64,000 nt of DNA, taken from Aureliella helgolandensis (GTDB lineage Bacteria; Planctomycetota; Planctomycetia; Pirellulales; Pirellulaceae). Location of the stretch: positions 310,001 to 374,000 of the forward strand of contig NZ_CP036298.1 of assembly GCF_007752135.1 (NCBI RefSeq), given 5' to 3'. Every line of letters starts with the position of its first letter. The first letter of the stretch is position 1. The notes below the pieces were generated by a model that saw only the letters and a list, made by a program, of their open reading frames with translations, was not told the origin of the DNA and ran no database searches. Positions 15,606-63,468 of this stretch are shown here, in pieces. The position numbers were made by a program, and so were the translations under genes.

Positions 15606-16547
15606 CTAGGCTAACCCCACGCGTTTCAAGACCGTGTCGAGCGTGGGACGCAATGCGGCGCCGCTATTGCGCAGGCCTTGCATCTCCTTCGGCCAGAGCT
15701 CAAGCTCGATCCGATTGACGACGCCGTCGCGACCGACCACTGTGGGGACCGACAGAGCTACATCGCGAATGCCGTAAGCGCCCGTTTGGATCGAACTCAC
15801 CGGCAATACCTTGTGGCTATCGAGCAAAATGGCCTCAATCACATCGCGAATGGCGATTCCCACGGCAAAGCCAGCCCCACCCTTCTTGCCAATGACCTCG
15901 GCTCCAGAGCCCTTGGTGCGGGTGAAGAGTTGGTTGGCAATGTTCGTATTCCAGCCAGGGTATTTTTCCAGTGGCAAGCCACCCACCGTTGCGCTCGACC
16001 AGACCGGGACCATGCTGTCGCCATGCTCGCCGAGGATCAGGGCCCGCGTCTGGGTCGGAGGAGCGTTCAGATGTTCGGAAATCAAACTGCAAAAGCGAAT
16101 CGTGTCGAGTTGCGTACCCAGGCCGAGGACTTGCGATTCGGGCAATCCCAGTGATTTGGCAGCCAGGTAGGTCAGAATGTCGACCGGGTTGCTCACCACG
16201 AGCACCTTGGCCGTGGGCTTTAGCCCCGCAGCTTTTACTTGCTGCAAGATTTGGTTGAACAAGTCGGTGTTGCGATTGATGAGATCCAGCCGTGATTCAT
16301 CCGGTTTGCGACGCAAGCCAGCTGTGATGCAAACCACATCACTGCTCGGGATGTGTTCGTACGATCCGGACGTAATGATTTGATCTGCCACGCTGGGAGC
16401 GCCATGCATAATATCGAGCGCCTGGCCGGCAGCAAGATCTGCATTGACATCCAACATTGCGATCTCACGCGCAACGCCACCGCACTGCAATGCGAATCCG
16501 GCGCACGAACCGACCAGACCACCACCACCAATAATACTAACTTTCAT
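15606..16547 (-). CDS. Lactate/malate dehydrogenase family protein, last gene of the microcompartment operon
   Basis: The 313-residue enzyme has the L-lactate/malate dehydrogenase fold: GGGGLVG NAD loop at the start, ITAGLRRKPDESRLDL (mobile specificity loop), VSNPVDILTYLAA and the active-site GEHGDSMVPVWS. At the key specificity position it has Arg (AGLRRKP), as malate dehydrogenases do, where lactate dehydrogenases have Gln. In the operon it would recycle the NADH made by the aldehyde dehydrogenase or oxidise lactate further. No encapsulation-type helix is visible at either end, so it may act outside the shell. It follows the aldolase gene by 55 bases. Confidence 0.88.
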   Translation of the reverse strand: MKVSIIGGGGLVGSCAGFALQCGGVAREIAMLDVNADLAAGQALDIMHGAPSVADQIITSGSYEHIPSSDVVCITAGLRRKPDESRLDLINRNTDLFNQILQQVKAAGLKPTAKVLVVSNPVDILTYLAAKSLGLPESQVLGLGTQLDTIRFCSLISEHLNAPPTQTRALILGEHGDSMVPVWSSATVGGLPLEKYPGWNTNIANQLFTRTKGSGAEVIGKKGGAGFAVGIAIRDVIEAILLDSHKVLPVSSIQTGAYGIRDVALSVPTVVGRDGVVNRIELELWPKEMQGLRNSGAALRPTLDTVLKRVGLA

Positions 16548-16602
16548 GTCATTCTTTCTATCGTTGACTTGGTCGCTGACTTGCTAATTCCGCACTGGCC
16601 AA

Positions 16603-17466
16603 TTACTTGCCGAGTTGTTTCATCACTTGATCGGTAATCAATTTGATCAACTGCTCTTCATTGATCCCCGAGGCGGAAGCCGGTGGTGCGGCGGGTTGCA
16701 TGGCAGGCATGGCAGGAGGAGCTTCGAAGGCGCGGCGTTCGACTCCGGAAGCTTCCCAGGTATTGCGAAAGACGTCATTGGCACAAATGTCGCAATTTTG
16801 GTACTCTTCGGTATTTCGCGGGTCGCTGAATCCCCACTTGTCCTTCAGTTCAAGCAGCTCCTTGCTCTTGGTTTGATCCAGGTACTGGACTCCACCGAGT
16901 TGTTTGGACAGCATCAGGATACGGCAGTAGGCATCCAGGATTTCAGTCCACCAATAGGCTCGTTCAACATCCTCACCGAAGCTAACCGTGCCGTGATTGG
17001 CAAGGATCATGACGTTGCATTTGTGAATGAACGGAATGATCGTATCGGCAAAGGCTTGTCCACCTGGGGTTTCGTACTTCGTGATGGGGACATCCCCTAA
17101 GAAAACCTCCACTTCAGGCAGCACGCACTGAGGAATGGGTTCGCGGGCAACGGCGAAGGCGGTTGCGTGAGGTGGGTGGCAGTGCACGACCGACTTGATG
17201 TCGTCGCGTTGCTTGTAAATCTCCAAGTGCAATAACGCTTCGCTACTGCGTTTCTTGTTGCCGGCAATTTGCTTGCCCGTCATGTCGATTGTCGAAATGT
17301 CTTCGGGCTTTAGAAATCCTTTGGAGTGCATTGTGGGCGTGCAAAGAACTTCATTTTCGCTAATGCGGACGGTGATATTGCCATCGTTGGCAGCCGCGAA
17401 GCCTTTGGCATAAATGCGACGACCAATCTCACACATGTCTTGCTTAATTTTGTGTGCGTTAACCAT
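16603..17466 (-). CDS. Class II aldolase (L-fuculose-phosphate type) with C-terminal encapsulation helix
   Basis: The 287-residue protein has a class II aldolase/adducin domain over residues 1-215. Glu76 (RSSEA) is the catalytic acid/base; His95 and His97 (HCHPPHA) and His158 (NHGT) are the zinc ligands. The family splits fuculose- or rhamnulose-1-phosphate into dihydroxyacetone phosphate and lactaldehyde. A Pro/Ala-rich linker (about 249-266) leads to a C-terminal amphipathic helix, INEEQLIKLITDQVMKQLGK, the form of an encapsulation peptide that targets cargo to the shell. A CxxC pair lies at Cys225/Cys228 (NCDICAND). It corresponds to the aldolase of the studied planctomycete compartment. 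Confidence 0.92.
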   Translation of the reverse strand: MVNAHKIKQDMCEIGRRIYAKGFAAANDGNITVRISENEVLCTPTMHSKGFLKPEDISTIDMTGKQIAGNKKRSSEALLHLEIYKQRDDIKSVVHCHPPHATAFAVAREPIPQCVLPEVEVFLGDVPITKYETPGGQAFADTIIPFIHKCNVMILANHGTVSFGEDVERAYWWTEILDAYCRILMLSKQLGGVQYLDQTKSKELLELKDKWGFSDPRNTEEYQNCDICANDVFRNTWEASGVERRAFEAPPAMPAMQPAAPPASASGINEEQLIKLITDQVMKQLGK

Positions 17467-17515
17467 GAACTACCTCTCGCAAATGTAAATGTGTCGTTGA
17501 ATTTTTGGTGGTGTT

Positions 17516-17827
17516 CTACTGAAATTTAATCTGTTGTACGGTCTGGGGATCGATATTGACGGTGTCTAGAATAGCGGAGCAATAGGCGTCGACCGCTTTC
17601 AGCTCTGGGCGGAACGGTTGGGCCGCTTCGCCTCCGTCACTGACGGCAATCTTAGCGCCCAATCCGGCTCCTAGTGCATCCCACACGATCAGTAAGTCGG
17701 GGTTTTCTGCGGCTGGGGTTCCTAGCAATTCTGCATCTGCCGACTCGGCCGCGACCAGCCGTGCACCGGTAAAGGTTGGGTGAAAGCGACTGAGGGTCAC
17801 ACTGCCCAGGACTTTGTAAATCTTCAC
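17516..17827 (-). CDS. BMC-P shell protein (EutN/CcmL family), third copy
   Basis: The 103-residue protein is a pentameric vertex protein of the EutN/CcmL (Pfam 03319) family: it opens KIYKVLGSVTLSRFHPTF and has LLIVWDALGAGLGAKIAVSDGG, the usual VDxxGAGxGxxVxxxxG strand-turn. The GTG start at 17825-17827 overlaps the TGA stop of the upstream gene (17824-17826) by a GTGA, so the two are translationally coupled; a longer frame upstream is a shadow of that gene. Trp-Asp replaces the usual Val-Asp before the GAG loop. BMC-P pentamers cap the corners of the polyhedral shell. Confidence 0.85.
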   Translation of the reverse strand: MKIYKVLGSVTLSRFHPTFTGARLVAAESADAELLGTPAAENPDLLIVWDALGAGLGAKIAVSDGGEAAQPFRPELKAVDAYCSAILDTVNIDPQTVQQIKFQ

Positions 17828-18495
17828 TGCAGGGTACTCCTGTTCCAGGCTCGAAGCGCATTGCCGATGGCCGCGGTTGTCCAATCCCTTTGGTTGAGGA
17901 TCAAGACGCTAGGCTCCGCTTCTGTGACGGCTTGTTGGATATCGGCTAGCCCAGAAATCTGGACGGCACGTAGCTCTTGATGCTGGCTGCGTAGGCAGGC
18001 CACTTGCGCCGCAAAGGGCTGGTCGGTGCACCATAATGCTCGATGTGCTGGGTGGTGGATATGAAGTTCGATTTGCGAAAGATCGGCCTTCGTTGCTTGA
18101 GTTGATCTGCAAAAATCGCCGCCGGCCTGTGCAACTTGACTGGCTAGGTGCTGTTCCATTTCAGCTGGAGCTAGGACGAGCAACTGCGATGGGGGACCGG
18201 ACTGTGGGGTGGAAGCTGGCTTCGATCGCAAAAGCTGTACGTTCCGTTGACGCAATTCGTCCTGAACCGCAGGGGTTACTACCGCTTGCGGAGGAACTTG
18301 AACGGTTTGAATGCCATCCAACCGCCCCCGCAGTGACTCCAGTGTCACCAGCGAGTGGGCGAGCTCCAACGTTGAGCTGGACACTGTTGAGGGGGCGTTG
18401 GGCAATGGATCTTGCGCCGCTCCAGCACTCATCGAACGCACTCGCTCAATCACGGTGCGCACGATAATGTCAATTTGTGCTGCGGTTAATTCCAT
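17824..18495 (-). CDS. Microcompartment operon protein of unknown function with N-terminal encapsulation-like helix
   Basis: I do not recognise this 223-residue protein with confidence. It opens MELTAAQIDIIVRTVIERVRSM, a short amphipathic helix of the type that targets cargo into shells (compare the aldehyde dehydrogenase of the same operon), then has a Ser/Pro/Ala-rich linker. The C-terminal half (about 100-223) looks like an alpha/beta domain: SQLLVLAPAEMEQHLASQV, LSQIELHIHHPAHRALWCTD, QISGLADIQQAVTEAEPSVLIL, ending in ALRAWNRS. The order HRALWCTDQPFAAQVAC then a hydrophobic strand vaguely resembles the end of RpiB/LacAB isomerases, but the active-site cysteine loop is not seen; this is only a hint. 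The gene overlaps the next shell gene and lies 7 bases after the previous one. Confidence 0.8.
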   Translation of the reverse strand: MELTAAQIDIIVRTVIERVRSMSAGAAQDPLPNAPSTVSSSTLELAHSLVTLESLRGRLDGIQTVQVPPQAVVTPAVQDELRQRNVQLLRSKPASTPQSGPPSQLLVLAPAEMEQHLASQVAQAGGDFCRSTQATKADLSQIELHIHHPAHRALWCTDQPFAAQVACLRSQHQELRAVQISGLADIQQAVTEAEPSVLILNQRDWTTAAIGNALRAWNRSTLQ

Positions 18496-18502
18496 GGCGG
18501 CT

Positions 18503-18763
18503 TCAATTGTCCACGAGGCCTAGAACGGCCCAACGGATCGGGGAATTTTCGACTCCGAACATTTCACGAATGGCCCCACCGTCACTGGTGAGCATGACTC
18601 GATCGCCTATACCGGCCCCGAATCGATCTACGGCCAGGGTCAGCGCGCCGTCGGCCGAGACTCCATCGGCGAGCAGCGGTTGGGCCACTAGCAGCTTGTG
18701 AGTCTCCAGCGTCCGGTGCTTGACGGTAGATTGGGTCGTTCCGACGATCATTGCGACTTGCAT
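18503..18763 (-). CDS. BMC-P shell protein (EutN/CcmL family), second copy
   Basis: The 86-residue protein is a compact EutN/CcmL-type pentamer subunit, close to the usual length: it opens MQVAMIVGTTQSTVKHRTLE, has KLLVAQPLLADGVS and the central VDRFGAGIGDRVMLTSDGGA, and ends SPIRWAVLGLVDN. The conserved pattern LDxxGAGxGdxVxxxxG is clear. It lies 12 bases behind the aldehyde dehydrogenase gene, inside the operon. Confidence 0.9.
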   Translation of the reverse strand: MQVAMIVGTTQSTVKHRTLETHKLLVAQPLLADGVSADGALTLAVDRFGAGIGDRVMLTSDGGAIREMFGVENSPIRWAVLGLVDN

Positions 18764-18775
18764 GTTGCGATTTTC

Positions 18776-20221
18776 CTAGCGGGTGCCGGGATCTCCTAGG
18801 ATCCACAGGTCGTCGATCAGGCTGCAGCGTCGCTCGCGGGTGAAGGTCATGGGACTGGTCACGCCCTCACCTGTTGGACCGGCGATCGAGAAGGAGATGT
18901 ATCCCTCGCCACCGAGGCCCAGTGAGGCCATGCAAGGACCGTTTTTCACAAATAGGGTCGTATCCATGGCACGCGCCATCTTGGTCATGTTGTGGACATC
19001 GCGCGAGTGAATAATGCTGGTGTGGCGGTAGCCGTGTTCGTAATGCTGGGCCAGTTCGATGCCGTGGTCGATATCGCGGCAGCGGACGAAGGGGAGGAAG
19101 GGCATCATCTGCTCAATCGACACAAATGGATGCTCCTCTCGAGTCTCGCCGTACAGCAATTCAGTGCTGGGAGCGACCGTCACACCGGCAGCGGCCGCCA
19201 GCTTGACGGCGTCTTGCCCAAGCAGAGCTTTGGTGGGTGCTAGGTGTCGGTCTTCCCCTACCTCTTGGAAGGCCGCCGAGGTGAGCTGGGCAATCTGAGC
19301 TTGGTTCAGTGGAACGGCTCCAGCACGCTGCATGGCAGCCATCATGGCATCGAAAACCGACTCGACGACAAACACTTCCTTCTCGGCAATGCACAGCAGG
19401 TTGTTGTCGAAGGATGCACCTTGGATAATGCACCGCGCGGCGCGATCCAGGTCAGCCGTTTCATCCACGACTACGGGAGGATTTCCAGGGCCGGCCACGA
19501 TGGCACGCTTGCCGCTATTGAGGGCGGCACGGGCGACCGCTGGTCCACCGGTTACGCAAATTAACGCTACATCGCGGTTGCCGAAGATCGCGGCGGCCGA
19601 TTCAAGTGTCGGTTCGCGGATCACGCAAATGAGGTTATCGATACCGATATCGTCGTAGATGGCTTGATTGAATCGTCGCACACCCTCGGCGGCTACCTTG
19701 CGGCCACTGGGGTGCGGATTGACCACCAGGGTGTTGCCACCAGCAATCATGCTGACGGCATTACCGGTAATCGTGGGCAGCGAGTGAGTTACCGGAGTGA
19801 TGCATCCGATTACTCCAAACGGCGCATGTTCGATAACAGCCAATCCGCGGTCGCCGCTGAAGGCTTGGGTCGTCAAGAACTCGGTTCCAGGAGCTAGTTT
19901 ACCGAGGCTTTCAAGTTTGGCGATTTTGTGGTCCAAACGCCCGACTTTAGTTTCGTTCATTTCCATCGTGCCGAGCTCGACGCGCTGGTCGATCGAAATG
20001 CGGCGAATATGGTCAATCGCTTTTTTGCGGTCTTCCATGGGGCGTGAACGAAGTTGTTCGAAGGCATAGCGAGCGGCGGCAACGGCCTTATCCGCGCAAT
20101 CAAATTGTCCGAAGCGTCCAGCTTCCGCTCCATGGCTGTGGCCTGGTTGGCTACCTTGTCCACGAACTTCTTGCAGGACTTGGGACACGACGCTTCGTAT
20201 GAGATCTTCGTTGATTTGCAT
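18776..20221 (-). CDS. CoA-acylating aldehyde dehydrogenase (PduP/EutE type) with N-terminal encapsulation helix
   Basis: The 481-residue enzyme is of the PduP/EutE group that oxidises an aldehyde to the acyl-CoA with NAD+. The catalytic cysteine is in FDNNLLCIAEK (Cys277), preceded by GGPAVARAALNSGKRAIVAG for the cofactor. The first helix QINEDLIRSVVSQVLQEV, followed by a Gly/His/Ser linker, is a typical encapsulation peptide. This decides the start: ATG at 20219-20221, although the frame is open 57 bases further. In this pathway the likely substrate is lactaldehyde, giving lactyl-CoA (inferred from the aldolase partner). Confidence 0.92.
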   Translation of the reverse strand: MQINEDLIRSVVSQVLQEVRGQGSQPGHSHGAEAGRFGQFDCADKAVAAARYAFEQLRSRPMEDRKKAIDHIRRISIDQRVELGTMEMNETKVGRLDHKIAKLESLGKLAPGTEFLTTQAFSGDRGLAVIEHAPFGVIGCITPVTHSLPTITGNAVSMIAGGNTLVVNPHPSGRKVAAEGVRRFNQAIYDDIGIDNLICVIREPTLESAAAIFGNRDVALICVTGGPAVARAALNSGKRAIVAGPGNPPVVVDETADLDRAARCIIQGASFDNNLLCIAEKEVFVVESVFDAMMAAMQRAGAVPLNQAQIAQLTSAAFQEVGEDRHLAPTKALLGQDAVKLAAAAGVTVAPSTELLYGETREEHPFVSIEQMMPFLPFVRCRDIDHGIELAQHYEHGYRHTSIIHSRDVHNMTKMARAMDTTLFVKNGPCMASLGLGGEGYISFSIAGPTGEGVTSPMTFTRERRCSLIDDLWILGDPGTR

Positions 20222-20274
20222 GTTCTTAACTATCTTGTGTTTGGACTCTTGGGTGGATGGCATCCGTGGCGAGT

Positions 20275-20589
20275 TCAATTGGATTTGCGATTGTAGACGT
20301 CTTGTTTTTCAATATTGACCGAGTCCACAATCCCAATGACGACACAGTCGATTGGTAGTTTCTGAGTTTCGGGCGTAAAGCGAGCGCTGCTGCCTTGGAC
20401 GATCAAGACGAAGTCGTTGACGCCAGCGCCCAGGGTGTCGACCGCTACAAAAGTACGCCCCGTAGTGACCAGTTGATCGCGCTTGTTGGATTCGAGCCGA
20501 TAGGGTTCGACAACCAGCAGTTTTTGACCGCGCATTGAATCGACCTTGGTGGTCGAAATGATCGATCCGGTTACTTTGGCAACAAACAT
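20275..20589 (-). CDS. BMC-P shell protein (EutN/CcmL family), first copy
   Basis: The 104-residue protein starts MFVAKVTGSIISTTKVDSM and has the EutN/CcmL core KLLVVEPYRL, VAVDTLGAGVNDFVLIVQGSSAR and VVIGIVDSVNI. The VDxLGAG signature is the best of the three copies. The start at 20587-20589 is chosen because the family begins exactly here; 23 extra codons upstream cover an RNA hairpin. Gap to the next gene is 53 bases. Confidence 0.92.
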   Translation of the reverse strand: MFVAKVTGSIISTTKVDSMRGQKLLVVEPYRLESNKRDQLVTTGRTFVAVDTLGAGVNDFVLIVQGSSARFTPETQKLPIDCVVIGIVDSVNIEKQDVYNRKSN

Positions 20590-20608
20590 ACTTCGGTACC
20601 TTGAAAAT

Positions 20609-20647
20609 GCTCTCCCGCCGTACGGCGGTGGGTAGGACTGGGAGAGC
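20609..20647 (-). promoter_or_regulatory. Stem-loop in the leader of the first BMC-P gene
   Basis: gctctccc (20609-20616) pairs with gggagagc (20640-20647), and the palindrome ccgccgtacggcgg (20615-20628) competes with or nests in it. It lies between the kinase stop and the BMC-P start. Possible roles are RNA stability, attenuation or control of shell-protein dosage. Confidence 0.45.
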
Positions 20648-20674
20648 AAGGCTTTCATTTTGTGCGCTGGGAAA

Positions 20675-21880
20675 CTAAGCCAGAGCGGCGACCGTCTGGC
20701 GGGCTACAATCAACTCTTCGTTCGTCGGTAGAACCCAAATTTGAGTTCGGTTGGTACCATCGTCGATGCGCGTTTCGCTACTTCGGGTGGCAGCATTTTT
20801 CGGTTCGTCGAGGGCCAGCCCCAGTTCTTGCAAACCGGCACACACGGCGGTTCGAATACTGGCTCCGTTCTCACCGATTCCACCGGTGAAGACCAAGGCA
20901 TCGCATCCGCCCAAGGCGACCAGCATGCCACCGAATTGTCTGCGGATTTCAGCCACGTAGACATCGAGAGCAAGTTGGGCATCGGCATTGCCATTCTGAG
21001 CGGCCGATTCCAGGTCACGAATGTCACCACTGATTCCGCCGGAGAGGCCGAGCAGGCCTGCTTCGCTGGACAGTGCTGCCAGTATTTCCTCTAGGTTCTT
21101 GCCGGTGTGCTGCATGAGCATTGGCAGACAGAATGGATCGAGGTCACCGACGCGATTGTTTTGAGGCAATCCCGTTTGAGGACTCATGCCCATCGTGGTG
21201 GCCACACTCTTGCCGCTTTGGATGGCGCATAGACTACTGGAGCCCCCGAGGTGGCACGAAATGACTCGCGCATCGGACCGCTTCAGGATTTCGGCGCTTC
21301 TTGTAGCGATATATCGATGACTTGCACCGTGGAATCCCCATTTGCGAATCGGCAACGCTTCGGCCCAGGCTTTAGGAAGGGCGTAGTGGTGCCGCGCGGC
21401 GGGTATCGTCTGGTGAAAATCCGTTTCGAAGGCAGCTACCAGGGCGATGTCGGGAACCGTTGAAGCCAACAATCGCATTGCCGCCAAGTAGGGCGGATTG
21501 TGCGCTGGCGCAACCGAGCTGACCTCTTCCATGGCATCCAGCACTTCGTCGTTGATGCGAAAGACGCCTTGGAAACGTCCTCCATGCACCGCTTTGAATC
21601 CGATCGCAGCGATCTCTTCTGGCCCCGTCAGGCAACCGTTGTCTGGGTCCGTGAGCTGCTGAATGCAAGCGCGGACTGCGACTCCGTGATGGGGGACTTC
21701 CAGCTCCATCTTTCCTTGGAACTCTCCAATTTCTACCGAACAAGGGCTGCTCGGTGAACCGATGCGTTCTACACCACCCCGCGCGAGTTGCTGCGCGGGC
21801 TGCCCAGACAATTCTGGAGTCATGTCGAACAAGCGGTATTTGAAGCTTGTAGAGCCTAAGTTGGCGACGAGAACCTTCAT
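20675..21880 (-). CDS. ackA: Acetate kinase family protein
   Basis: The 401-residue protein has the acetate kinase (ASKHA) fold: MKVLVANLGSTSFKYRLFDM at the start, KAVHGGRF, ETDFHQTIPAARHHYALP, KWGFHGASHRYIA, FTGGIGENGASIR and a closing LPTNEELIVA. Two nucleotide/substrate loops differ from ordinary AckA: HLGGSSSLCAI replaces HLGNGAS and TGLPQNNRVGDLDPF replaces EGLMMGTRSGDIDP. In the pathway it would turn the acyl phosphate made by PduL into the acid plus ATP; with lactaldehyde as the source this would be lactyl phosphate. No encapsulation helix is visible, as expected for an enzyme outside the shell. Confidence 0.9.
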   Translation of the reverse strand: MKVLVANLGSTSFKYRLFDMTPELSGQPAQQLARGGVERIGSPSSPCSVEIGEFQGKMELEVPHHGVAVRACIQQLTDPDNGCLTGPEEIAAIGFKAVHGGRFQGVFRINDEVLDAMEEVSSVAPAHNPPYLAAMRLLASTVPDIALVAAFETDFHQTIPAARHHYALPKAWAEALPIRKWGFHGASHRYIATRSAEILKRSDARVISCHLGGSSSLCAIQSGKSVATTMGMSPQTGLPQNNRVGDLDPFCLPMLMQHTGKNLEEILAALSSEAGLLGLSGGISGDIRDLESAAQNGNADAQLALDVYVAEIRRQFGGMLVALGGCDALVFTGGIGENGASIRTAVCAGLQELGLALDEPKNAATRSSETRIDDGTNRTQIWVLPTNEELIVARQTVAALA

Positions 21881-21972
21881 CCCTGCTCCTGCTTGGGGGT
21901 GTTGTAATGCGTCAACGGGGACCGCATGCTTAGCTAGGCCAAGCTGGCTGGCACCCGTTGCCGAGGATCGCT

Positions 21973-22302
21973 CTAGCCGAAAAAAGCGGTGGCAAGTCCT
22001 TCAGCGGGACGAGCGATGATGTGACTGCTCACAAGATCACCTGCTTGCGAAGCGGCGCTGGCACCTGCCTCGACGGCTGCACGAACGCTACCGACATCGC
22101 CGCTGACGACCGTGGTGACCAGTCCACCGCCGATATCGATTCGCTTAACGATTTCTACGTTGGCTGCCTTGACCATCGCGTCGGTCGCTTCGACCAAAGC
22201 CAGGAGTCCCTTGGTTTCAATTAGTCCAATTGCTTGTTGCATGTTCTTTAAGCCTGTTGCTGGAGCGGAAGGGGGCTGCCCTTCATTTAACTGATTGTTC
22301 AT
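21973..22302 (-). CDS. BMC-H shell protein with N-terminal extension
   Basis: The 109-residue protein has the BMC hexamer domain (Pfam 00936): QAIGLIETKGLLALVEATDAMVKAANVEI, RIDIGGGLVTTVVSGDVGSVRAAVEAGA and HIIARPAE. The pore loop is DIGGG. An 18-residue Asn/Gln/Pro extension (MNNQLNEGQPPSAPATGL) precedes the domain. It follows the other BMC-H gene by 58 bases. Confidence 0.93.
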   Translation of the reverse strand: MNNQLNEGQPPSAPATGLKNMQQAIGLIETKGLLALVEATDAMVKAANVEIVKRIDIGGGLVTTVVSGDVGSVRAAVEAGASAASQAGDLVSSHIIARPAEGLATAFFG

Positions 22303-22360
22303 TGTGCTATTTGTCTTGTGATCGATTGGGCGAAGCGACTGTGGTAGTCGCGGGGGTCGC

Positions 22361-22645
22361 CTAGCCGCCGACGTTCAAAATCTTGGATAGGTCTTCGTGA
22401 GGGCGGGCGATGACTTGCACGCTCACCACTTCACCGACTCGTCCGGCAGCTGCTGCACCGGCATCCGTGGCTGCTTTTACAGCCGCTACGTCACCTGCAA
22501 CAAACGCCGAGACCAAGCCGTTGCCGACTTTGTCCCATCCTAAAAACTGCACATTGGCAGCTTTCATCATTGCATCGACAGCTTCAACCAGGGTTACAAA
22601 ACCCTTGGTTTCAATCATTCCCAACGCTTCCGAAATCTTTGCCAT
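22361..22645 (-). CDS. BMC-H shell protein
   Basis: The 94-residue protein is a plain BMC hexamer domain: [28 protein letters not shown], then the pore loop KVGNG ([21 protein letters not shown]) and VIARPHEDL at the end. The ATG at 22643-22645 is chosen over the further open frame because a GAGGAG ribosome site lies about ten bases upstream and the family starts here. It should form the main facet tile. Confidence 0.94.
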
Positions 22646-22722
22646 GTTCGATTTTCTCCTCGCTTTTGGCATGAGTAATTCAGCCCCGTAGGGCTGCGTT
22701 AAAGTTTAGTGGTCGGTGCGCG

Positions 22723-23430
22723 CTAGTGCCCTTTGCACTTGCAGTCACCTTGGGGTTTCAGTTCAATTGAGGTGGCCGCGTCTAGATTGCACGCGTTGCC
22801 TTCGTCGGTATCGATGTGGACCTCCAGCTTGGCCGCCTTATCGGCGCGCACCAGCAAGTCGTCAAACGATACACTGCAGTCGGGACTCGAGACTTTCAAG
22901 GTCATCAAGTCTCCGTTTTCGACGCCATAGTAGGCTGCCTCTTCGAAGCTCATGTGGACGTGACGGGCAGCGCGAATTACACCTTCGGAAAGCTCGACGG
23001 CGCCGGCGGGGCCTACCAGGACGCAGCCTGGCGTGCCTTGGATCTTCCCCGAGTGACGCACGGGAGCTTGGATGCCCAGGGAAATCGCATCGGTGAGCGC
23101 GAGTTCGACTTGGCTAAACGACCGCGTCGGTCCCAAGACGCGAACTTCAGGAAGCATCCGTTTGCGTGGGCCGACAATCATGACCGTTTCTTTGGCCGCA
23201 TAGAATCCGTCTTGGAAAAGATCCTTTCCGGGCGTAAGCGTGTGCCCCTTGCCGAATAGTTGCTCCACGTGGGCGTCGGTCAGATGAACATGCCGAGCCG
23301 AAATGCTAACGCGCAATTCTGGCTTGACTGCCAATGGTGGTGATTGGATACCACTGGCTTGTGCGACGCGACCAACGATCTGACGCACTAAACTCTCGAC
23401 GTATTGCCTGTCGGCGGTGTGAGTGGGCAT
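22723..23430 (-). CDS. pduL: PduL-type phosphate acyltransferase
   Basis: The 235-residue enzyme converts acyl-CoA and phosphate to acyl phosphate and CoA inside the shell. Both half-barrel PduL signatures with zinc-binding histidines are present: ISARHVHLT in the first half and RAARHVHMS in the second, with GPRKRMLPEVRVLGP and GPAGAVEL between. The N-terminus YVESLVRQIVGRVAQA is an encapsulation-type helix, which supports the ATG at 23428-23430; the frame is open 99 bases further but that part overlaps the regulator gene. The His/Cys-rich end (DCKCKGH) is unusual. Confidence 0.92.
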   Translation of the reverse strand: MPTHTADRQYVESLVRQIVGRVAQASGIQSPPLAVKPELRVSISARHVHLTDAHVEQLFGKGHTLTPGKDLFQDGFYAAKETVMIVGPRKRMLPEVRVLGPTRSFSQVELALTDAISLGIQAPVRHSGKIQGTPGCVLVGPAGAVELSEGVIRAARHVHMSFEEAAYYGVENGDLMTLKVSSPDCSVSFDDLLVRADKAAKLEVHIDTDEGNACNLDAATSIELKPQGDCKCKGH

Positions 23431-23461
23431 GATGCAAAATTTCTTTGAGGTTGCTAGGTGC

Positions 23462-24310
23462 TCAATTGTCTTTCGGTGTTTCGTTCTCTGGCGCGGTGGT
23501 CCCGCCCACTTGGTTCGCCAGATCGGCATGTTCTGGATCGCTACCAGCCAACACCAGCTCCACGCCTGCGTCGAGCAGATGGTTCTGCCACTCTTCGCTC
23601 AAATCGTCGTCGCTAACTACCACGTGCACCTTATGCAAGCCGCACAATCGCGCCAGTGAGCATTTGCCGAACTTACTACTATCGGCCACGATGACGGTGC
23701 GGTCGGCACAGTCCATCATCGCTCGCTCGGTTTCCACCAGCAGCAAATTGCTGTTGTAGAAACCGCGGCGGTCCGCGCCCGCAATGCTCAAGACGGCTGT
23801 CTGGACATTCAGACTACTGAGCATCTCGTTGGCGTAGGGGCCGAGCGAAACGCCAGTCCGGCTGTGCACGTATCCACCAAGTAGAACCAGATCGATCTGG
23901 TCGCTGGCGGCGTACAGGTTGGCGAGTGGTAGGGAGTTGGTCACCACCTGTAACGGGCGTCCTACCAACTGCTTGGCCAACTCGTACGTGGTGCTGCCCC
24001 CGTCGAGCAGTAGGGTGTCGTGATTCTCTACCAGCTTACTTGCCGCTACGGCGATCCGTCTCTTCTTTTCCCATTGTTCCGCGCGGCGGGTCTCAAACAC
24101 TCCCAGCGACGAGGTCGGGCCAGTGGAAAAAACCCCACCATGGGTCCGCTTCGCCTCCCCCTCCGCTTCCAGGAAATCCAAGTCCCGACGAATGGTCGAT
24201 TCACTGACATCCAAACTTGAACGCAGATCGGGGATCGACACAAAGCCTTGGCTTCGGATTAGCTCCCGGAGCTTGAGTCTTCTCAGGTCGGTGGCGGCCC
24301 CGTTGCTCAA
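23462..24310 (-). CDS. DeoR family transcriptional regulator of the microcompartment operon
   Basis: The 282-residue protein has the DeoR/GlpR layout: an N-terminal winged helix (LKLRELIRSQGFVSIPDL, then SESTIRRDLDFLEAEG and KRTHGGVF) and a DeoRC sugar-phosphate sensor domain (LLLDGGSTTYELA, TNSLPLANLYA, LVLLGGYVHSRTGVSLGP, VIVADSSKFG). The family is usually a repressor relieved by a phosphorylated sugar, here probably a fuculose- or rhamnulose-phosphate or dihydroxyacetone phosphate. It is the first gene of the operon, 31 bases before pduL, so it likely controls itself and the ten genes after it. Confidence 0.92.
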   Translation of the reverse strand: MSNGAATDLRRLKLRELIRSQGFVSIPDLRSSLDVSESTIRRDLDFLEAEGEAKRTHGGVFSTGPTSSLGVFETRRAEQWEKKRRIAVAASKLVENHDTLLLDGGSTTYELAKQLVGRPLQVVTNSLPLANLYAASDQIDLVLLGGYVHSRTGVSLGPYANEMLSSLNVQTAVLSIAGADRRGFYNSNLLLVETERAMMDCADRTVIVADSSKFGKCSLARLCGLHKVHVVVSDDDLSEEWQNHLLDAGVELVLAGSDPEHADLANQVGGTTAPENETPKDN

Positions 24311-25482: not shown

Positions 25483-27240
25483 ATGCACCATTCTCTTTAC
25501 CTGTTGTTCTGCGTGTGCTCATGCCTTGGCTTAGGTTGTGATCGAGAAGAGCCAGCGGACGATTCGGGATCGATGCAAGTTGATGTAGCGGATCTGTTTG
25601 TCGGGCAGCCGACGATTCGTGGCAATCCGATCGAACGGGTGCCGTTGGTCGCAATCGTCGATCTCGAGTCGCCTGTAGAAGTCGTGCCCTCGCTAGAGAT
25701 TTCCGATGGAGATCGAGTTTGGATTCAGCCGTGGCCGGTGAAGCCCGCTACAAAGCATCGCGTGGCAGTCATGGGGATGCGACCGAATCGCTCGCATACC
25801 ATACGAGTCCGGGTAGACGCTGCAGACTCCGTGCAGGAGCAATGGAGTGAGCCGCTGTTCTTCCAAACTCCCCCCCTGCCCGACAACTTTCCACCCATTT
25901 CCGTAGTGCACGCGGAGCCGCAACGGATGGAACCAGGGGTTACCTTCTTTGCCACCAACATTTGGAAGGACTCCATCAGTATCCTCGATTACGGATACAT
26001 CGTGGCTTTGGATGCTGAGGGACAAGTGGTGTGGTTTTGCGAGACGACGGACCGCATTGCCGACATGCGCATCTTGAAGAACGGGCACATCCTCTATCAG
26101 CACGGCAATTATCGGTACGCTTATGAGATTGACATCTTAGGACGCGACATCAATCGCTGGGTGGCAACCAACTTGACGGAGCTGCCTGATTCCGGTTCGA
26201 TTCCGGTTGGAATTGATACAACGCACCACGATATACTCGAGCTTCCTAACGGAAACTTCCTGACATTGGCAACCGTTCTGAAGCATTTTGAGGAGTTCCC
26301 GACCAGTGAACTGGATCCCGAGGCCCCTTGGGCTGCAGCGCATGTGGTGTGCGATGATATCGTGGAGTTCAATCCTAGGACTGGGGTGATTGTTAAACGT
26401 TTTCCCTTGTCCAGCGTGTTGGACAACAAGCGTCTGGGCTACATGTCGCTCGGAAGCTTTTGGAAGGATAAGTACAACGATGAGGAGGGGAATGTTATCT
26501 CGCGAGACTGGAGCCATGCAAACGGTCTGACGTACTTGCCGGATGAATCGGCGCTTCTCATTTCGTTTCGCCATCAAGATTGCGTGATGAAGTTGGATTG
26601 GAAGACGCATGAGATTCGCTGGATATTCGGCAATCCAGAGGGCTGGGCAGACGTCTGGCAGCAATACATGTTGAAGCCGGTAGGAGAGTTGGCTTGGTGC
26701 TATCATCAACATGCACCTCAGTGGACACCGCGTGGAACCTTGATGCTCTATGACAACGGCAATTATCGTGCACGTCCATTCCAGCAGCCAATGCAAGCTT
26801 ACGAGAATCAGAGCCGGGTCGTTGAGTTCAGGATTGATGAAGAGGCGATGACGGTTGAGCAAGTGTTCGAATATTCGGGGGGGGAGGACGATCCCTTTTA
26901 CAGTCCGTTCTATTGCGAAGCCGATTGGCTGCCCAACACGCAGAATATCTTGGTTACCGATGGTGGACACGTCGAGTTGTCGGATGGGACCCCGAGCGAC
27001 AACGTGCCGGGTGAACGCCAGTGGGCAAGGATTTTTGAATTGACGCGTGATGCTCAGCCGGAACGCGTGTTTGAGATCCAGATCGATAGCGGAATGGAAA
27101 GCCCCTTTGGTTGGTCGGTCTACCGCGCCATGCGGTTGCCTAACTTGATCGATGGCTTCCGGATCGATCCCTTGGCCGTAGATGAACCCGTGCCTCGATT
27201 CGAGCGGGATCCCCATGAGAAGCGGGAGGTGTTGCATTAG
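25483..27240 (+). CDS. Arylsulfotransferase (ASST)-like lipoprotein
   Basis: The 585-residue protein has a lipoprotein signal (hydrophobic start, then SCLGLGC, Cys near residue 19). An N-terminal beta domain (to about residue 125) is followed by a beta-propeller of the bacterial arylsulfotransferase type: GYIVALDAEGQVVWFCET, DTTHHDILELPNGNFLTLA, DWSHANGLTYLPDESALLIS, VMKLDWKTHEIRWIFGNPEGW, and CYHQHAPQWTPRGTLMLYDNGN. The His residues in HHD, SHANG and HQHAP match the catalytic and ligand histidines of the family. ASST transfers sulfate between aryl donors and acceptors. A sulfatase gene lies 99 bases downstream. Confidence 0.85.
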   Translation: MHHSLYLLFCVCSCLGLGCDREEPADDSGSMQVDVADLFVGQPTIRGNPIERVPLVAIVDLESPVEVVPSLEISDGDRVWIQPWPVKPATKHRVAVMGMRPNRSHTIRVRVDAADSVQEQWSEPLFFQTPPLPDNFPPISVVHAEPQRMEPGVTFFATNIWKDSISILDYGYIVALDAEGQVVWFCETTDRIADMRILKNGHILYQHGNYRYAYEIDILGRDINRWVATNLTELPDSGSIPVGIDTTHHDILELPNGNFLTLATVLKHFEEFPTSELDPEAPWAAAHVVCDDIVEFNPRTGVIVKRFPLSSVLDNKRLGYMSLGSFWKDKYNDEEGNVISRDWSHANGLTYLPDESALLISFRHQDCVMKLDWKTHEIRWIFGNPEGWADVWQQYMLKPVGELAWCYHQHAPQWTPRGTLMLYDNGNYRARPFQQPMQAYENQSRVVEFRIDEEAMTVEQVFEYSGGEDDPFYSPFYCEADWLPNTQNILVTDGGHVELSDGTPSDNVPGERQWARIFELTRDAQPERVFEIQIDSGMESPFGWSVYRAMRLPNLIDGFRIDPLAVDEPVPRFERDPHEKREVLH

Positions 27241-27339
27241 GATGCACACTGAGGTTTCGTGGTTGTGCCATTTTAAACGGATGGCTAAGCATCGTTTTAA
27301 TGGCGGTAATTCTTGTTATTCCTAAGGCTGATTCTTGAT

Positions 27340-28860
27340 ATGAAAAAAACCTTTTCGATCTTCTGTTTACTCCTCCTTAATCTGACTTGGGTGTCTGCAG
27401 CCGAGCGTCCCAATATTGTCTTAATTTATTCGGACGACGTCGGCTACGGTGATGTGTCGTGCAATGGGCAGACGACCCTGCTCACTCCGCACATCGATCG
27501 CATTGCCGCGGAAGGACTGCGCATGACCGATGCCCATTGCTCGGCCGCAACATGCACGCCGAGCCGCTTCGCGATGCTAACCGGGCAATACGCGTTTCGC
27601 CAAAAGGGGACCGGCATTGCACGCGGAAACGCGAACATGATCATCGAAGCCGGTTCCAACACGTTGCCCAGTCTGCTGAAATCTGCCGGTTACACCACCG
27701 GGGTCGTTGGGAAGTGGCACTTAGGGTTGGGGGACCAGGAGATTGATTGGAATCAAGATGTGCGTCCTGGCCCGGGGGAAATTGGCTTTGACTATCACTT
27801 TTTGATCCCTGCTACGGGCGATCGCGTGCCTTGCGTCTATTTAGAGCAAGGGCACGTAGTCGATCTCGATCCAGCAGATCCGATCGCGGTAAGTTACGGA
27901 AAGCGGATTGATCCGAATCCCTCCGGTGCTGAAGCGTTTGAGACGCTCAAGCAGAAGTGGTCGCATGGTCACAATCAAACCATCGTCAATGGAATTTCTC
28001 GCATTGGGTGGATGACGGGCGGAGAGACGGCGCGTTGGGTGGATGAGGATATGGCGGACGTGATCGTCCACAAGGCGACTGAGTTTATCGACGATCATCA
28101 GGCTGAGCCCTTCTTCCTGTATTTTTCGACACACGATATTCATGTGCCACGCGTCCCGCATTCTCGCTTTGCAGGCAAGTCGGGTTTGGGGCCTCGTGGC
28201 GATGCGATGCTTCAGCTCGATTGGTGTGTCGGCCAAGTTATGGCCAAATTGGAGGCACTGGATCTCGTGGACAACACGCTGCTGATCTTCACTTCCGATA
28301 ACGGTCCAGTGCTTGACGATGGCTACCATGATGACGCAAATGAAAAGCTCGGCGACCATCAAGCCAATGGGGCGCTTCGCGGTGGAAAGTATTCTGCGTT
28401 TGAAGGCGGGACGCGCATTCCCATGGTCTTGCGCTGGCCTGAACATATTGCACCCAACACGACGTCAGACGCCCTGTTTGGGCAGATTGACCTGGCCGCT
28501 ACGCTGGCGAAGCTTGTCGGTGCGCAGGTTCCACCGCAAGCCTGCCAGGACAGTCGCAACGCTCTGCCAACCCTACTCGGCAAGGATCCCGTCGGTCGTC
28601 CCCACCTTATCCATGAGGCTGGCAACCATGCCTTGCGGGTTGGCAAATGGAAGTATGTGCCTGCAGGAAAGACTCGCGAGCACCTGGGACCTTGGGCAAC
28701 AGTAGAGCTAGAGGCACCAGGGGCGCTGTTTGACCTCAGTAAGAACACTGCAGAGATCGAGGATGTAGCCGCGGACCATCCCGAGCAACTGCAACGCATG
28801 CGCGACTTGCACGCGAAGCTCAGCCAGCATCCCGATCAAGCTGCCGTGATTGGGCAGTAA
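27340..28860 (+). CDS. Secreted arylsulfatase-type sulfatase
   Basis: The 506-residue sulfatase starts with a signal peptide (MKKTFSIFCLLLLNLTWVSA). PNIVLIYSDDVGYGD gives the metal-binding aspartates, and CTPSR (Cys72) is the residue converted to formylglycine by a sulfatase-modifying enzyme, not present in this window. GVVGKWHLG, FFLYFSTHDIHVP and IFTSDNGPV are further active-site motifs. The start at the ATG 27340 gives a clean signal peptide; the frame is open 27 bases further. A likely substrate is a sulfated algal polysaccharide. Confidence 0.93.
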   Translation: MKKTFSIFCLLLLNLTWVSAAERPNIVLIYSDDVGYGDVSCNGQTTLLTPHIDRIAAEGLRMTDAHCSAATCTPSRFAMLTGQYAFRQKGTGIARGNANMIIEAGSNTLPSLLKSAGYTTGVVGKWHLGLGDQEIDWNQDVRPGPGEIGFDYHFLIPATGDRVPCVYLEQGHVVDLDPADPIAVSYGKRIDPNPSGAEAFETLKQKWSHGHNQTIVNGISRIGWMTGGETARWVDEDMADVIVHKATEFIDDHQAEPFFLYFSTHDIHVPRVPHSRFAGKSGLGPRGDAMLQLDWCVGQVMAKLEALDLVDNTLLIFTSDNGPVLDDGYHDDANEKLGDHQANGALRGGKYSAFEGGTRIPMVLRWPEHIAPNTTSDALFGQIDLAATLAKLVGAQVPPQACQDSRNALPTLLGKDPVGRPHLIHEAGNHALRVGKWKYVPAGKTREHLGPWATVELEAPGALFDLSKNTAEIEDVAADHPEQLQRMRDLHAKLSQHPDQAAVIGQ

Positions 28861-61757: not shown

Positions 61758-63341
61758 CTAGTCTGACGGATGCGTATTTTGAGAGACAAAACTGGGGTTG
61801 GGGGGCGGCATTCGTGCCGCAACTTCCATTCTCCAGTTGTGCAATTGGTTTCTCAGTTCCTGAACCTTCTCAGGCTGAGTCGCGGAGAGATCGACCTGCT
61901 CACCAATGTCCTCCTTCAAGTTGAATAACTGCACCGAATGATTTTCAAAGTATTCAATGAGTTTGAAATCTCCGGAACGCACTGCTCCACCTGGGCTCTG
62001 CATGCCGTGATTGCTGTAGTGAGGGAAATGCCAGAAAAGAGCTTCCCGGGAGCAGGCTGTCTCTCCAGTGAGAAGCGGAGCGAGGCTAATCCCATCAGTG
62101 ACAGGGGGCGGAGCTGCGATACCGGTTAGCTCGGCAAGGGTTGGGTAGATGTCGGTACTGATGACTGGAACCTCACAGACGTTTTGGCTCAACGCTACGT
62201 GAGGTGATTTGATGATCATGGGGATTCGGATACCTCCTTCGTACAACCAGCCTTTTCCGCCCCTCAGGGGAAGATTGGAGGTTGAGAATGCCCGATCTAG
62301 ATTCGCAGGCGATATGCTTCTGCGAGGATTTCCGAAGTTGGCGGCAGACATGCCACCGTTGTCGGACGTGAACACAATGATCGTGTTGTCCTCCAGCTCG
62401 AGAGATTCCAGCTTTGCCAGCAGTCTGCCTAAACTCTGGTCGATGGACTCGACCATGGCAGCGAATTGAGCATTGTCTTGATGTTGCTTGACTTTCACGG
62501 TTCGCTCGGGGAGCACTTTAAAGCCCTCCCAGTCGCTGTTCGCGGCTCGTCGATCGAGCTGTGCGCGCGTTAGAGGGACCAGTGCGTCGGGATTGCCTTC
62601 CAGTAGAAATGAGGGCTTTGGAGACGGTGCACGTCGCGCAAGTCGCTGCTGATACTTGTCGACCAAATCCAGTCGCCCTTCGATGGGATCGTGGACCGCA
62701 AAATGAGCGAGGTAAAGGAAGAAGGGTTGGTCGCCGCTCGATTCGATGAATCGTTCCGCTTCTTCTGTAAGAGTATCGGTCAGGTAGGCGCCGTCCGATC
62801 GGTCGAGTCCCTCCATGGCGTAGGGAGCGTAGTACCCCGCTTTGGGCCATCCCTTGTTCCACTGTGGTATACGCACGTCAAAGCCATGTTGTGTCGGATC
62901 GTTCGGGGATTCCCCCAAATGCCATTTTCCGAAGTGACCGGTGCGATAGCCACAGGAACGGAGTAGTTCTGCAAGCGTGATTTCGCTGGCTGGCAACGCT
63001 TGAAGGGAGCGGACGTTCTGCAAGCGTTGGAAGGGAAAGTCTTTGCGACCAGGTAACCAGTCGGTCAACTGCAATCGCGCCGGATACTTGCCGGTCAAGA
63101 TACTAGCCCGACTGGGAGAGCATACATGGCACGTCGCGTAGGCTTGCGTGAATCGCGTTCCCTGACTGGCCAGACGGTCAATGTTGGGAGTTTCATGGAA
63201 GCTGGAGCCGTAGCACCCCACATCGCTCCAGCCGAGGTCGTCGACCAAGAAGAGAACGACGTTCGGCAGACGCTCCATCCCATGGATTTCATATTGCGAA
63301 CAGCAAATCGTTGCTAGGATCAATAACCGAAATACTGACAT
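61758..63341 (-). CDS. Secreted sulfatase
   Basis: The 527-residue sulfatase starts MSVFRLLILATICCSQYEIH with a short signal. NVVLFLVDDLGWSDVGCYGS holds the metal-binding acids; CSPSR (Cys74) is the formylglycine site. GHFGKWHLGE and VFTSDNGGMSAANFG are further active-site motifs. The frame is open 96 bases further, but ATG 63339-63341 gives a typical start. It is divergent from the amidohydrolase-like lipoprotein gene, with 127 bases between. Confidence 0.93.
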   Translation of the reverse strand: MSVFRLLILATICCSQYEIHGMERLPNVVLFLVDDLGWSDVGCYGSSFHETPNIDRLASQGTRFTQAYATCHVCSPSRASILTGKYPARLQLTDWLPGRKDFPFQRLQNVRSLQALPASEITLAELLRSCGYRTGHFGKWHLGESPNDPTQHGFDVRIPQWNKGWPKAGYYAPYAMEGLDRSDGAYLTDTLTEEAERFIESSGDQPFFLYLAHFAVHDPIEGRLDLVDKYQQRLARRAPSPKPSFLLEGNPDALVPLTRAQLDRRAANSDWEGFKVLPERTVKVKQHQDNAQFAAMVESIDQSLGRLLAKLESLELEDNTIIVFTSDNGGMSAANFGNPRRSISPANLDRAFSTSNLPLRGGKGWLYEGGIRIPMIIKSPHVALSQNVCEVPVISTDIYPTLAELTGIAAPPPVTDGISLAPLLTGETACSREALFWHFPHYSNHGMQSPGGAVRSGDFKLIEYFENHSVQLFNLKEDIGEQVDLSATQPEKVQELRNQLHNWRMEVAARMPPPNPSFVSQNTHPSD

Positions 63342-63468
63342 GTCATTGACATTCCTATTCTTGTGGGCAAGAGTGGGGAGGCAATCGCATTCTAACTCAG
63401 TGACGGTCAGTAGAGGGGATGGTCTTTTGAGTCGCACGGACTACCGCGCACATGCCGGGGAGAGAAAG

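What the first reader, a model, noticed from the sequence alone, without database searches (positions are those of the whole stretch)
15606..24310. Complete planctomycete-type microcompartment operon for a lactaldehyde pathway
Eleven collinear minus-strand genes with gaps under 100 bases encode a DeoR regulator, PduL, two BMC-H, three BMC-P, acetate kinase, CoA-acylating aldehyde dehydrogenase, a class II aldolase, a lactate/malate dehydrogenase and one unassigned protein. There is no BMC-T protein, no glycyl-radical enzyme, no diol dehydratase and no alcohol dehydrogenase, so the shell should handle lactaldehyde made by the aldolase, as known for the related locus of Planctopirus limnophila grown on fucose or rhamnose. 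That the same sugars apply here is inference.
Basis: partly seen in the sequence, partly recalled or inferred. Interest (0 to 1): 0.75.

Follow-up and report, generated by a model that had tools for sequence, protein, structure and literature searches.

The report
Bacterial organelle operon for deoxy-sugars
This is a standard planctomycete gene set for a protein-shelled bacterial organelle that handles a toxic aldehyde from deoxy-sugars; the locus is ordinary, but its supposed lactate or alcohol dehydrogenase has the signature of a malate dehydrogenase, which would change how the organelle is thought to balance its redox budget.

Summary
In detail: window 15606-24310 (minus strand) is a complete Planctomycetes-Verrucomicrobia microcompartment (PVM) locus, with 12 genes rather than 11. 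It is common: its aldehyde dehydrogenase has a close relative in 191 of 248 class genomes, and 61 of 63 loci examined are collinear.

Four refinements.
(1) The 'lactate/malate dehydrogenase' has malate-type residues at both tested specificity positions: Arg102 in 50 of 50 sequences, Ala/Ser246 in 22 of 22. The published role, alcohol dehydrogenase, looks unlikely; a malate/oxaloacetate NAD+ shuttle is more plausible but untested. Seven genomes with the locus lack a close copy.
(2) The unassigned protein has an RpiB-fold domain without the catalytic cysteine, behind an encapsulation-peptide-like N-terminus.
(3) 'No BMC-T' is true only of the operon. An unlinked BMC-T exists in this genome and, counting it, in 12 of 52 PVM genomes, against 0 of 14 without PVM. 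In three it follows a class I aldolase with an encapsulation-like tail.
(4) The genome has rhamnose isomerase and a rhamnulokinase-like gene but no fucose isomerase hit, which favours rhamnose.

The locus is ordinary; the dehydrogenase point is the testable novelty.

The parts
23462..24310 (-). DeoR-family regulator (TTG start in the ORF list)
   Evidence: PF00455 2.5e-44, PF08220 1.2e-14
22723..23430 (-). PduL-type phosphotransacylase; likely ATG start at 23430; EP-like N-terminal helix
   Evidence: PF06130 4.7e-71; NF011652 241.7 bits, over its cut-off of 209; helix moment
22361..22672 (-). BMC-H shell protein 1
   Evidence: PF00936 2.1e-25
21973..22302 (-). BMC-H shell protein 2
   Evidence: PF00936 5.1e-26
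20675..21880 (-). acetate/propionate-family kinase
   Evidence: PF00871 5.5e-100; TIGR00016 331.2 bits, over its cut-off of 293.4
20275..20589 (-). BMC-P pentamer protein 1 (ORF listed to 20658; likely start at 20589)
   Evidence: PF03319 4.7e-27
18776..20221 (-). CoA-acylating aldehyde dehydrogenase with EP-like N-terminal helix (ORF listed to 20278)
   Evidence: PF00171 1.7e-32; NF011927 615.8 bits, over its cut-off of 403; helix moment
18503..18763 (-). BMC-P pentamer protein 2
   Evidence: PF03319 1.2e-20
17824..18495 (-). the 'unassigned' protein: EP-like N-terminal helix, short VTPxxxD segment, C-terminal RpiB-fold domain without a conserved catalytic Cys
   Evidence: no family hit of its own; relatives hit PF02502; all 11 PDB profile hits are RpiB/LacB; model pLDDT 87.9, Foldseek top 18 RpiB
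17516..17827 (-). BMC-P pentamer protein 3 (likely GTG start at 17827, overlapping the stop of the gene before it)
   Evidence: PF03319 8.7e-12
16603..17466 (-). class II aldolase with C-terminal linker and EP-like helix
   Evidence: PF00596 7.6e-49; FucA-like structures; tail
15606..16547 (-). LDH/MDH-superfamily dehydrogenase (PvmO position) with Arg102 and Ala246: malate-type
   Evidence: PF00056/PF02866; residue checks

Best explanation
The window carries a member of the known PVM microcompartment. Shown by homology: a shell of 2 BMC-H and 3 BMC-P, class II aldolase, CoA-acylating aldehyde dehydrogenase, PduL, acetate-type kinase, DeoR regulator. Inferred from published PVM work: the aldolase cleaves L-rhamnulose- (or L-fuculose-) 1-phosphate to DHAP and L-lactaldehyde; the aldehyde is oxidised inside the shell to lactyl-CoA, then lactyl phosphate, then lactate with ATP, so the toxic aldehyde stays confined. 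My change to that model: the last gene encodes a malate-type 2-keto-acid dehydrogenase, so NAD+ used by the aldehyde dehydrogenase is most likely regenerated by oxaloacetate + NADH -> malate, with malate carrying the electrons out to the separate, probably housekeeping, malate dehydrogenase, as in a malate shuttle. The unassigned protein is most likely a non-catalytic RpiB-derived core or assembly protein. Rough confidence per step: PVM membership 0.97; lactaldehyde 0.85; malate-type specificity 0.75; shuttle inside the lumen 0.4; RpiB fold 0.9; its loss of isomerase activity 0.75.
For: Gene families. Order shared with 61 of 63 AldDH-bearing regions; 47 of 63 hold all eleven genes other than the fast-evolving unassigned one. 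AldDH relative (E <= 1e-100) in 191 of 248 class genomes. Dehydrogenase: Arg102 in 50 of 50 sequences, the window plus 49 loci found through AldDH; catalytic set R109/D168/R171/H195 kept and residue 246 Ala (20) or Ser (2) in 22 of 22 PVM sequences, as Arg/Ala in 9 of 9 presumed housekeeping MDHs, whereas two planctomycete LDH-like proteins and three PDB LDHs have Gln102/Thr246. Arg102 = MDH and Gln102 = canonical LDH in PMC4109310 (passages). A second MDH-like gene exists in the genome, 34% identical. Rhamnose isomerase; rhamnulokinase-like. Unassigned protein.
Against: No enzyme was assayed. NCBIfam scores the dehydrogenase about equally as L-LDH (274.4, 272.2 bits) and MDH (271.8), all below cut-offs, and its eight best PDB hits are called L-LDH. 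In the one tree made, long branches meet and the place of the PVM clade is unsure. One PDB 'L-LDH' (1y6j) also has Arg102, though with Thr246. Of the 57 regions that are neither cut nor split, 8 lack the gene beside the locus, and 7 of those 8 genomes show no close copy, so it cannot be the only NAD+ recycler everywhere. The C-terminus of this dehydrogenase and that of the kinase are not EP-like, so encapsulation of the dehydrogenase is not shown. Most EP-like helices here are not clearly more amphipathic than shuffles of themselves.
Confidence: 0.7

Rival explanations
1. Published model: the dehydrogenase acts as the core alcohol dehydrogenase, reducing one lactaldehyde to 1,2-propanediol to regenerate NAD+ for oxidation of the other.
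For: Axen 2014 says the LDH/MDH-pfam gene was predicted to provide the alcohol-dehydrogenase function (PMC4207490, passages). PMC6620236, citing Erbilgin 2014, gives lactaldehyde -> 1,2-propanediol and lists PvmO among alcohol dehydrogenases (passages). That PvmO is this gene is my inference.
Against: The enzyme keeps the full 2-keto-acid catalytic set, including Arg171, which binds the substrate carboxylate (recalled), and has Arg102; lactaldehyde has no carboxylate. If the organism is aerobic, as PVM hosts are described, making propanediol gains little (inference).
Confidence: 0.12
2. The dehydrogenase is an L-lactate dehydrogenase that oxidises the lactate end product to pyruvate, or reduces pyruvate to recycle NAD+.
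For: The eight best PDB hits are called L-LDH; L-LDH profiles score as high as MDH profiles; lactate is the expected product.
Against: Arg102 in 50 of 50 and no Thr246 in 22 of 22; lactate oxidation would use NAD+ rather than regenerate it.
Confidence: 0.15
3. The dehydrogenase is malate-type but cytosolic, linked to the operon for flux reasons only, and NAD+ crosses the shell or is recycled otherwise.
For: The C-terminus of this protein is not EP-like; seven PVM genomes show no close copy.
Against: In two sets of related loci the dehydrogenase ends in a linker with a conserved short motif (RVTISG in 12 loci, not all from different genomes; IPRxAW in 5), which looks like a docking tail.
Confidence: 0.33
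4. The locus serves another sugar phosphate (for example a pentulose or tetronate derivative) and makes a different aldehyde.
For: The aldolase scores best against 3-oxo-tetronate-4-phosphate decarboxylase (135.9 bits, cut-off 250) and below the fuculose/rhamnulose aldolase cut-offs; no fucose isomerase hit here.
Against: Same gene order as G222, taken to be P. limnophila; rhamnose isomerase and a rhamnulokinase-like gene present; fuculose-phosphate aldolases among the nearest structures.
Confidence: 0.12

Closest known systems
PVM bacterial microcompartment of Planctopirus limnophila (Erbilgin 2014, not held, nothing seen; known here through passages of PMC4207490, PMC8217296, PMC8857213 and PMC6620236)
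   Same: The 12 genes in the same order and strand in G222, which I take to be this species; dehydrogenase 61% identical (L078)
   Different: No difference in locus layout seen. This genome also has an unlinked BMC-T (no full-length relative in G222) and rhamnose isomerase (no hit in G222)
GRM5 'fucosome' of Clostridium phytofermentans (passages)
   Same: Class II aldolase, DeoR regulator, fucose/rhamnose substrates
   Different: No glycyl-radical enzyme and no zinc alcohol dehydrogenase among the 12 genes here
SPU and SPU-like microcompartments (passages)
   Same: SPU-like loci combine a class II aldolase with an RpiB-like protein; the PVM unassigned protein has an RpiB fold
   Different: SPU RpiB is described as a sugar isomerase; the PVM protein lacks a conserved catalytic cysteine
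LDH-like malate dehydrogenases with Arg102 (PMC4109310, passages)
   Same: Arg102 and the catalytic residues
   Different: PVM proteins form their own group, at 22-40% identity to the other superfamily members found in PVM genomes searched, with a fixed LRR(K/Q)P loop in place of the xxRKPG loop

Membership tests
PVM microcompartment | PF00596 class II aldolase as signature enzyme | tested here: met
   PF00596 7.6e-49
PVM microcompartment | AldDH, PduL and acetate kinase core, DeoR regulator | tested here: met
PVM microcompartment | LDH/MDH-pfam gene as the only other NAD enzyme | tested here: met
   PF00056/PF02866
[quoted passage not shown]
   2 BMC-H, 3 BMC-P
PVM microcompartment | Gene order of the PVM locus in Planctomycetes | tested here: met
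   61 of 63 AldDH-bearing regions collinear; includes G222, taken as P. limnophila
PVM microcompartment | AldDH falls in the PVM branch of the AldDH tree | not tested
   no tree of AldDH was built; only similarity searches
PVM microcompartment | Induced by and needed for growth on fucose/rhamnose; polyhedral bodies | not testable with these tools
   needs culture, transcripts and microscopy
GRM5 fucosome | Glycyl-radical enzyme in the locus | tested here: not met
   none of the 12 genes
L-lactate dehydrogenase | Gln at position 102 | tested here: not met
   Arg in 50 of 50
Malate dehydrogenase | Arg102 with R109/D168/R171/H195 | tested here: met
   22 of 22 PVM sequences
Malate dehydrogenase | Over a curated MDH family cut-off | tested here: not met
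   271.8 bits against 283 (NF004863); 211.1 against 351.85 (TIGR01763)
Malate dehydrogenase | Activity with oxaloacetate over pyruvate | not testable with these tools
   needs enzyme assay
Fuculose/rhamnulose-phosphate aldolase | Over a curated cut-off | tested here: not met
   NF040649 110.5 bits against 250, NF005302 98.3 against 264, NF002963 58.9 against 170
Fuculose/rhamnulose-phosphate aldolase | Zinc/catalytic motifs (SSE, HxH, NHG; their role recalled) | tested here: met
   aligned with the same motifs of 4c24
RpiB (unassigned protein) | RpiB fold | tested here: met
   Foldseek top 18 all RpiB, best E 1.1e-4, target TM 0.75, query TM 0.43 because about half the protein is covered; 11 of 11 profile hits at E <= 1 RpiB/LacB
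RpiB (unassigned protein) | Catalytic Cys of the CGTG motif (role recalled) | tested here: not met
   the column that one search sets opposite this Cys holds T13 S6 A5 V3 C1 of 28; the column before it has C in 3 of 28, the window copy among them

The most novel reading that the evidence does not exclude
PVM compartments balance their lumen redox with a malate shuttle, like a peroxisome or glyoxysome. A dedicated Arg102 dehydrogenase, tethered in some families by a short C-terminal docking tail, reduces oxaloacetate inside the shell, and malate carries the electrons to the cytosolic MDH. The shell is also modular: an unlinked satellite supplies a BMC-T pore and, in some genomes, a class I (DHDPS-family) aldolase with its own encapsulation tail, so that a second, pyruvate-releasing sugar-acid route could feed the same aldehyde core.
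Probability: 0.3. Interest if true: 0.7.

Novelty: new member of a known kind. Interest (0 to 1): 0.4.

Why it matters
Some metabolosome loci have no obvious alcohol dehydrogenase, and how they regenerate NAD+ is left open in print (PMC4207490, passages). For PVM the answer in print rests on a dehydrogenase assigned by elimination. A fixed malate-type signature across the family makes a different, quickly testable prediction, with consequences for carbon flux from algal fucose and rhamnose (lactate plus respiration rather than propanediol). The RpiB link and the satellite aldolase/BMC-T module bear on where PVM came from and how widely one shell can be reused.

Tried and rejected
Conserved DeoR operator: inverted repeats upstream of DeoR in the window and 13 related loci (one with only 47 bases) gave no 10-mer shared by five or more; a palindrome suggested by a few of them had 0 matches in the window with up to 3 mismatches, 0.30 expected. 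Dropped.

CsoS2 parallel for the dehydrogenase tails: CsoS2 has (V/I)(T/S)G repeats (PMC11365436, passages, listing). The RVTISG tails look loosely similar, but I recalled the CsoS2 C-terminus only vaguely and did not test it; not claimed.

EP calling by hydrophobic moment is weak: AldDH alone falls under 5% of its shuffles (0.018); PduL 0.177, unassigned protein 0.158, aldolase 0.086, the three DHDPS tails 0.293, 0.064 and 0.112. 'EP-like' therefore rests on pattern and position.

Arg102 in the 80 loci (79 with the full residue set) is not used as evidence, because one of the two scan patterns was TAGLRRKP. For the same reason position 102 of the five Verrucomicrobiota rows is not independent. 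Rows left out: two distant relatives (L200, L201; 22% identity, Gly aligned at 102) and L197.

In print: 'bacterial microcompartment' + 'malate shuttle' gave 1 paper (listing only, not on PVM); two searches were further listings, in which I saw no paper on a PVM malate shuttle, but I did not open most of them. The DHDPS satellite: listing, 8 of 16 shown; no such term in PMC8217296. RpiB in PVM. Only open-licence papers are held, supplements were not readable and Erbilgin 2014 is not held, so 'not in print' is not claimed.
Full report
What is there. Window 15606-24310 holds 12 collinear minus-strand genes: DeoR, PduL, two BMC-H, acetate-type kinase, BMC-P, CoA-acylating aldehyde dehydrogenase, BMC-P, an unassigned protein, BMC-P, class II aldolase, and an LDH/MDH-superfamily dehydrogenase. 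The largest gap is 92 bases. The finding says eleven genes, but its own list makes twelve. Four ORFs as listed start upstream of the likely true start.

It is an ordinary PVM locus. A relative of its aldehyde dehydrogenase (E <= 1e-100) is in 191 of 248 genomes of the class; Sutter 2021 already counted 285 PVM loci (PMC8217296, passages). I fetched 64 regions of 8.6-20 kb; 63 hold the aldehyde dehydrogenase, and 61 of these have the genes they hold in the window's order. The two exceptions move the unassigned gene past a BMC-P, which may come from sorting stop-to-stop frames. One region (L042) had no aldehyde dehydrogenase, and one (L073) only the aldehyde dehydrogenase and one BMC-P. One locus (L078, genome G222) I take to be P. 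limnophila, because its contig of 5,423,075 bases plus the 37,010-base plasmid gives 5,460,085, the genome size in the abstract of PMC3035269; the body of that paper prints 5,460,075 for the chromosome, which does not fit. The closest named records include Pirellulaceae (88% for the dehydrogenase).

The dehydrogenase. In print it is assigned by elimination: Axen 2014 says it was predicted to provide the alcohol-dehydrogenase function because it is the only gene besides AldDH that could regenerate NAD+ (PMC4207490, passages), and PMC6620236, citing Erbilgin 2014, describes lactaldehyde reduced to 1,2-propanediol (passages). The sequence argues otherwise. At LDH position 102, Arg in MDHs and Gln in canonical LDHs (PMC4109310, passages), all 50 sequences (window plus 49 loci found through AldDH) have Arg. 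For position 246 (role recalled) I looked at 22: the window, 16 of the 49, and 5 Verrucomicrobiota loci; 20 have Ala and 2 Ser. Presumed housekeeping MDHs of the phylum have Arg/Ala in 9 of 9, whereas two planctomycete LDH-like proteins and three PDB LDHs have Gln/Thr; a third planctomycete protein has Trp/Thr and PDB 1y6j has Arg/Thr. The catalytic residues are kept in all 22. The genome has a second MDH-like gene, 34% identical. Against this reading: profile scores do not separate LDH from MDH, the eight nearest structures are named LDH, and the tree has long branches.

Is it needed, and is it inside? Of the 63 regions, 14 lack the gene: five are cut by a contig end (L048, L067, L068, L080, L097), one is a split locus (L073), and eight lack it there (the sorting is mine, from the contig ends). 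Of those eight genomes, G137 has a 61%-identical copy elsewhere and seven have only relatives of 32-40%; one of the seven, G156, is a single contig. So the gene is common but dispensable. The C-terminus of the window protein is not EP-like. In 12 loci the dehydrogenase ends in a linker with RVTISG near the end, and in 5 others with IPRxAW; among the frames of both locus sets the only other match was an 84-residue frame with IPRSAW. The 12 are not all different genomes (L072 and L182 have the same tail and contig length; L156 and L160 one isolate). I read these as possible docking tails.

The unassigned protein. The window copy hits no Pfam or NCBIfam family. It evolves fast: 29% and 34% identity to the two same-genus copies, where the five enzymes have 75-86%. 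From the 80 loci, 34 copies were recovered by rule, and 27 of these were aligned with the window copy. PF02502 (LacAB_rpiB) matched 12 of 28 at E <= 1; it matched 6 of 8 members tested, E 1.1e-5 to 0.17, one above the gathering score. A profile of the alignment found 11 PDB sequences at E <= 1, all RpiB or LacB, best 0.0038. An AlphaFold model (pLDDT 87.9, pTM 0.58) matched RpiB structures in the first 18 Foldseek places, best E 1.1e-4, over about half its length. The CGTG cysteine is not conserved: opposite it stand T13 S6 A5 V3 C1 of 28, with C in 3 of 28, the window copy among them, one column earlier. The N-terminal part resembles TIGR02536 (17 of 28), EutQ (4) and PduM (4), all weakly. 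A non-catalytic core or assembly protein is my best guess. SPU-like loci pair a class II aldolase with an RpiB-like protein (PMC4207490, passages), which suggests shared ancestry (inference).

Shell and satellite. Besides the two BMC-H genes, this genome has one more frame with BMC domains: a 217-residue tandem BMC-T at C1:8337078-8337728, about 430 kb away if the single contig is circular (not tested). Nine neighbouring ORFs scanned gave no other BMC domain and no sugar-pathway enzyme that I recognise; one is a proline dehydrogenase/aldehyde dehydrogenase fusion. Across 66 genomes, a full-length relative occurs in 12 of 52 with PVM (this genome counted) and 0 of 14 without. In three of the 12 regions (G368, G188, G243) it directly follows a PF00701 aldolase; some of the other regions are short, and not all their ORFs were scanned. 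These aldolases keep an IKDSSGD motif (catalytic lysine recalled) and end in a linker plus an EP-like helix resembling that of the PVM aldolase. In G368, rhamnose isomerase lies next to it. Family profiles do not settle the substrate. Satellite BMC loci as such are known (PMC8217296, passages).

The sugar. This genome: rhamnose isomerase yes; rhamnulokinase-like yes at 483.6 bits, under the 527.95 cut-off, with a model that also rings in 11 of 14 control genomes, 2 over the cut-off; fucose isomerase no hit. Among 56 genomes, 52 of them with PVM, the fucose isomerase C-terminal domain is in 24 (23 over the cut-off, many partial) and rhamnose isomerase in 14. G222 has neither, although P. limnophila is reported to use both sugars (passages), so absence of these families does not exclude a sugar. 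The aldolase's nearest structures are 'aldolase' 6voq and fuculose-phosphate aldolases, but it reaches no curated cut-off.

Verdict. The locus is a member of a known kind. The new points are the malate-type dehydrogenase, the RpiB identity of the orphan protein, and the BMC-T/aldolase satellite; none has been tested at the bench. Erbilgin 2014 could not be read, so some of this may already be noted there.

Noticed in passing
genome C1:8337078-8337728 (L215:8079-8732): Unlinked BMC-T gene; full-length relatives in 12 of 52 PVM genomes (this one counted) and 0 of 14 without PVM.
   Followed up: partly
L250:7831-8883, L256:9344-10369, L258:9530-10609: DHDPS-family aldolase with an EP-like C-terminal tail directly upstream of the BMC-T in three genomes; candidate second aldehyde source for the PVM shell.
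   Followed up: partly
C-termini of the dehydrogenase in L072, L079, L081, L085, L086, L089, L098, L156, L157, L159, L160, L182 and L075, L084, L087, L088, L096: Linker plus conserved end motif (RVTISG in the first twelve, IPRxAW in the last five).
   Followed up: partly
window 25483-28860 and 61758-63437: Arylsulfotransferase and sulfatase next to the PVM locus and a second sulfatase further on; a possible hint at sulfated polysaccharides as source of the sugar.
   Followed up: no
genome G087 (L042, L073, and C2:128970-129676): PVM-type genes lie on at least three contigs in this genome.
   Followed up: no
window 40304-48363: Two very large minus-strand ORFs (1870 and 843 aa) without a Pfam match at 1e-10, beside a BatA-domain protein.
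   Followed up: no
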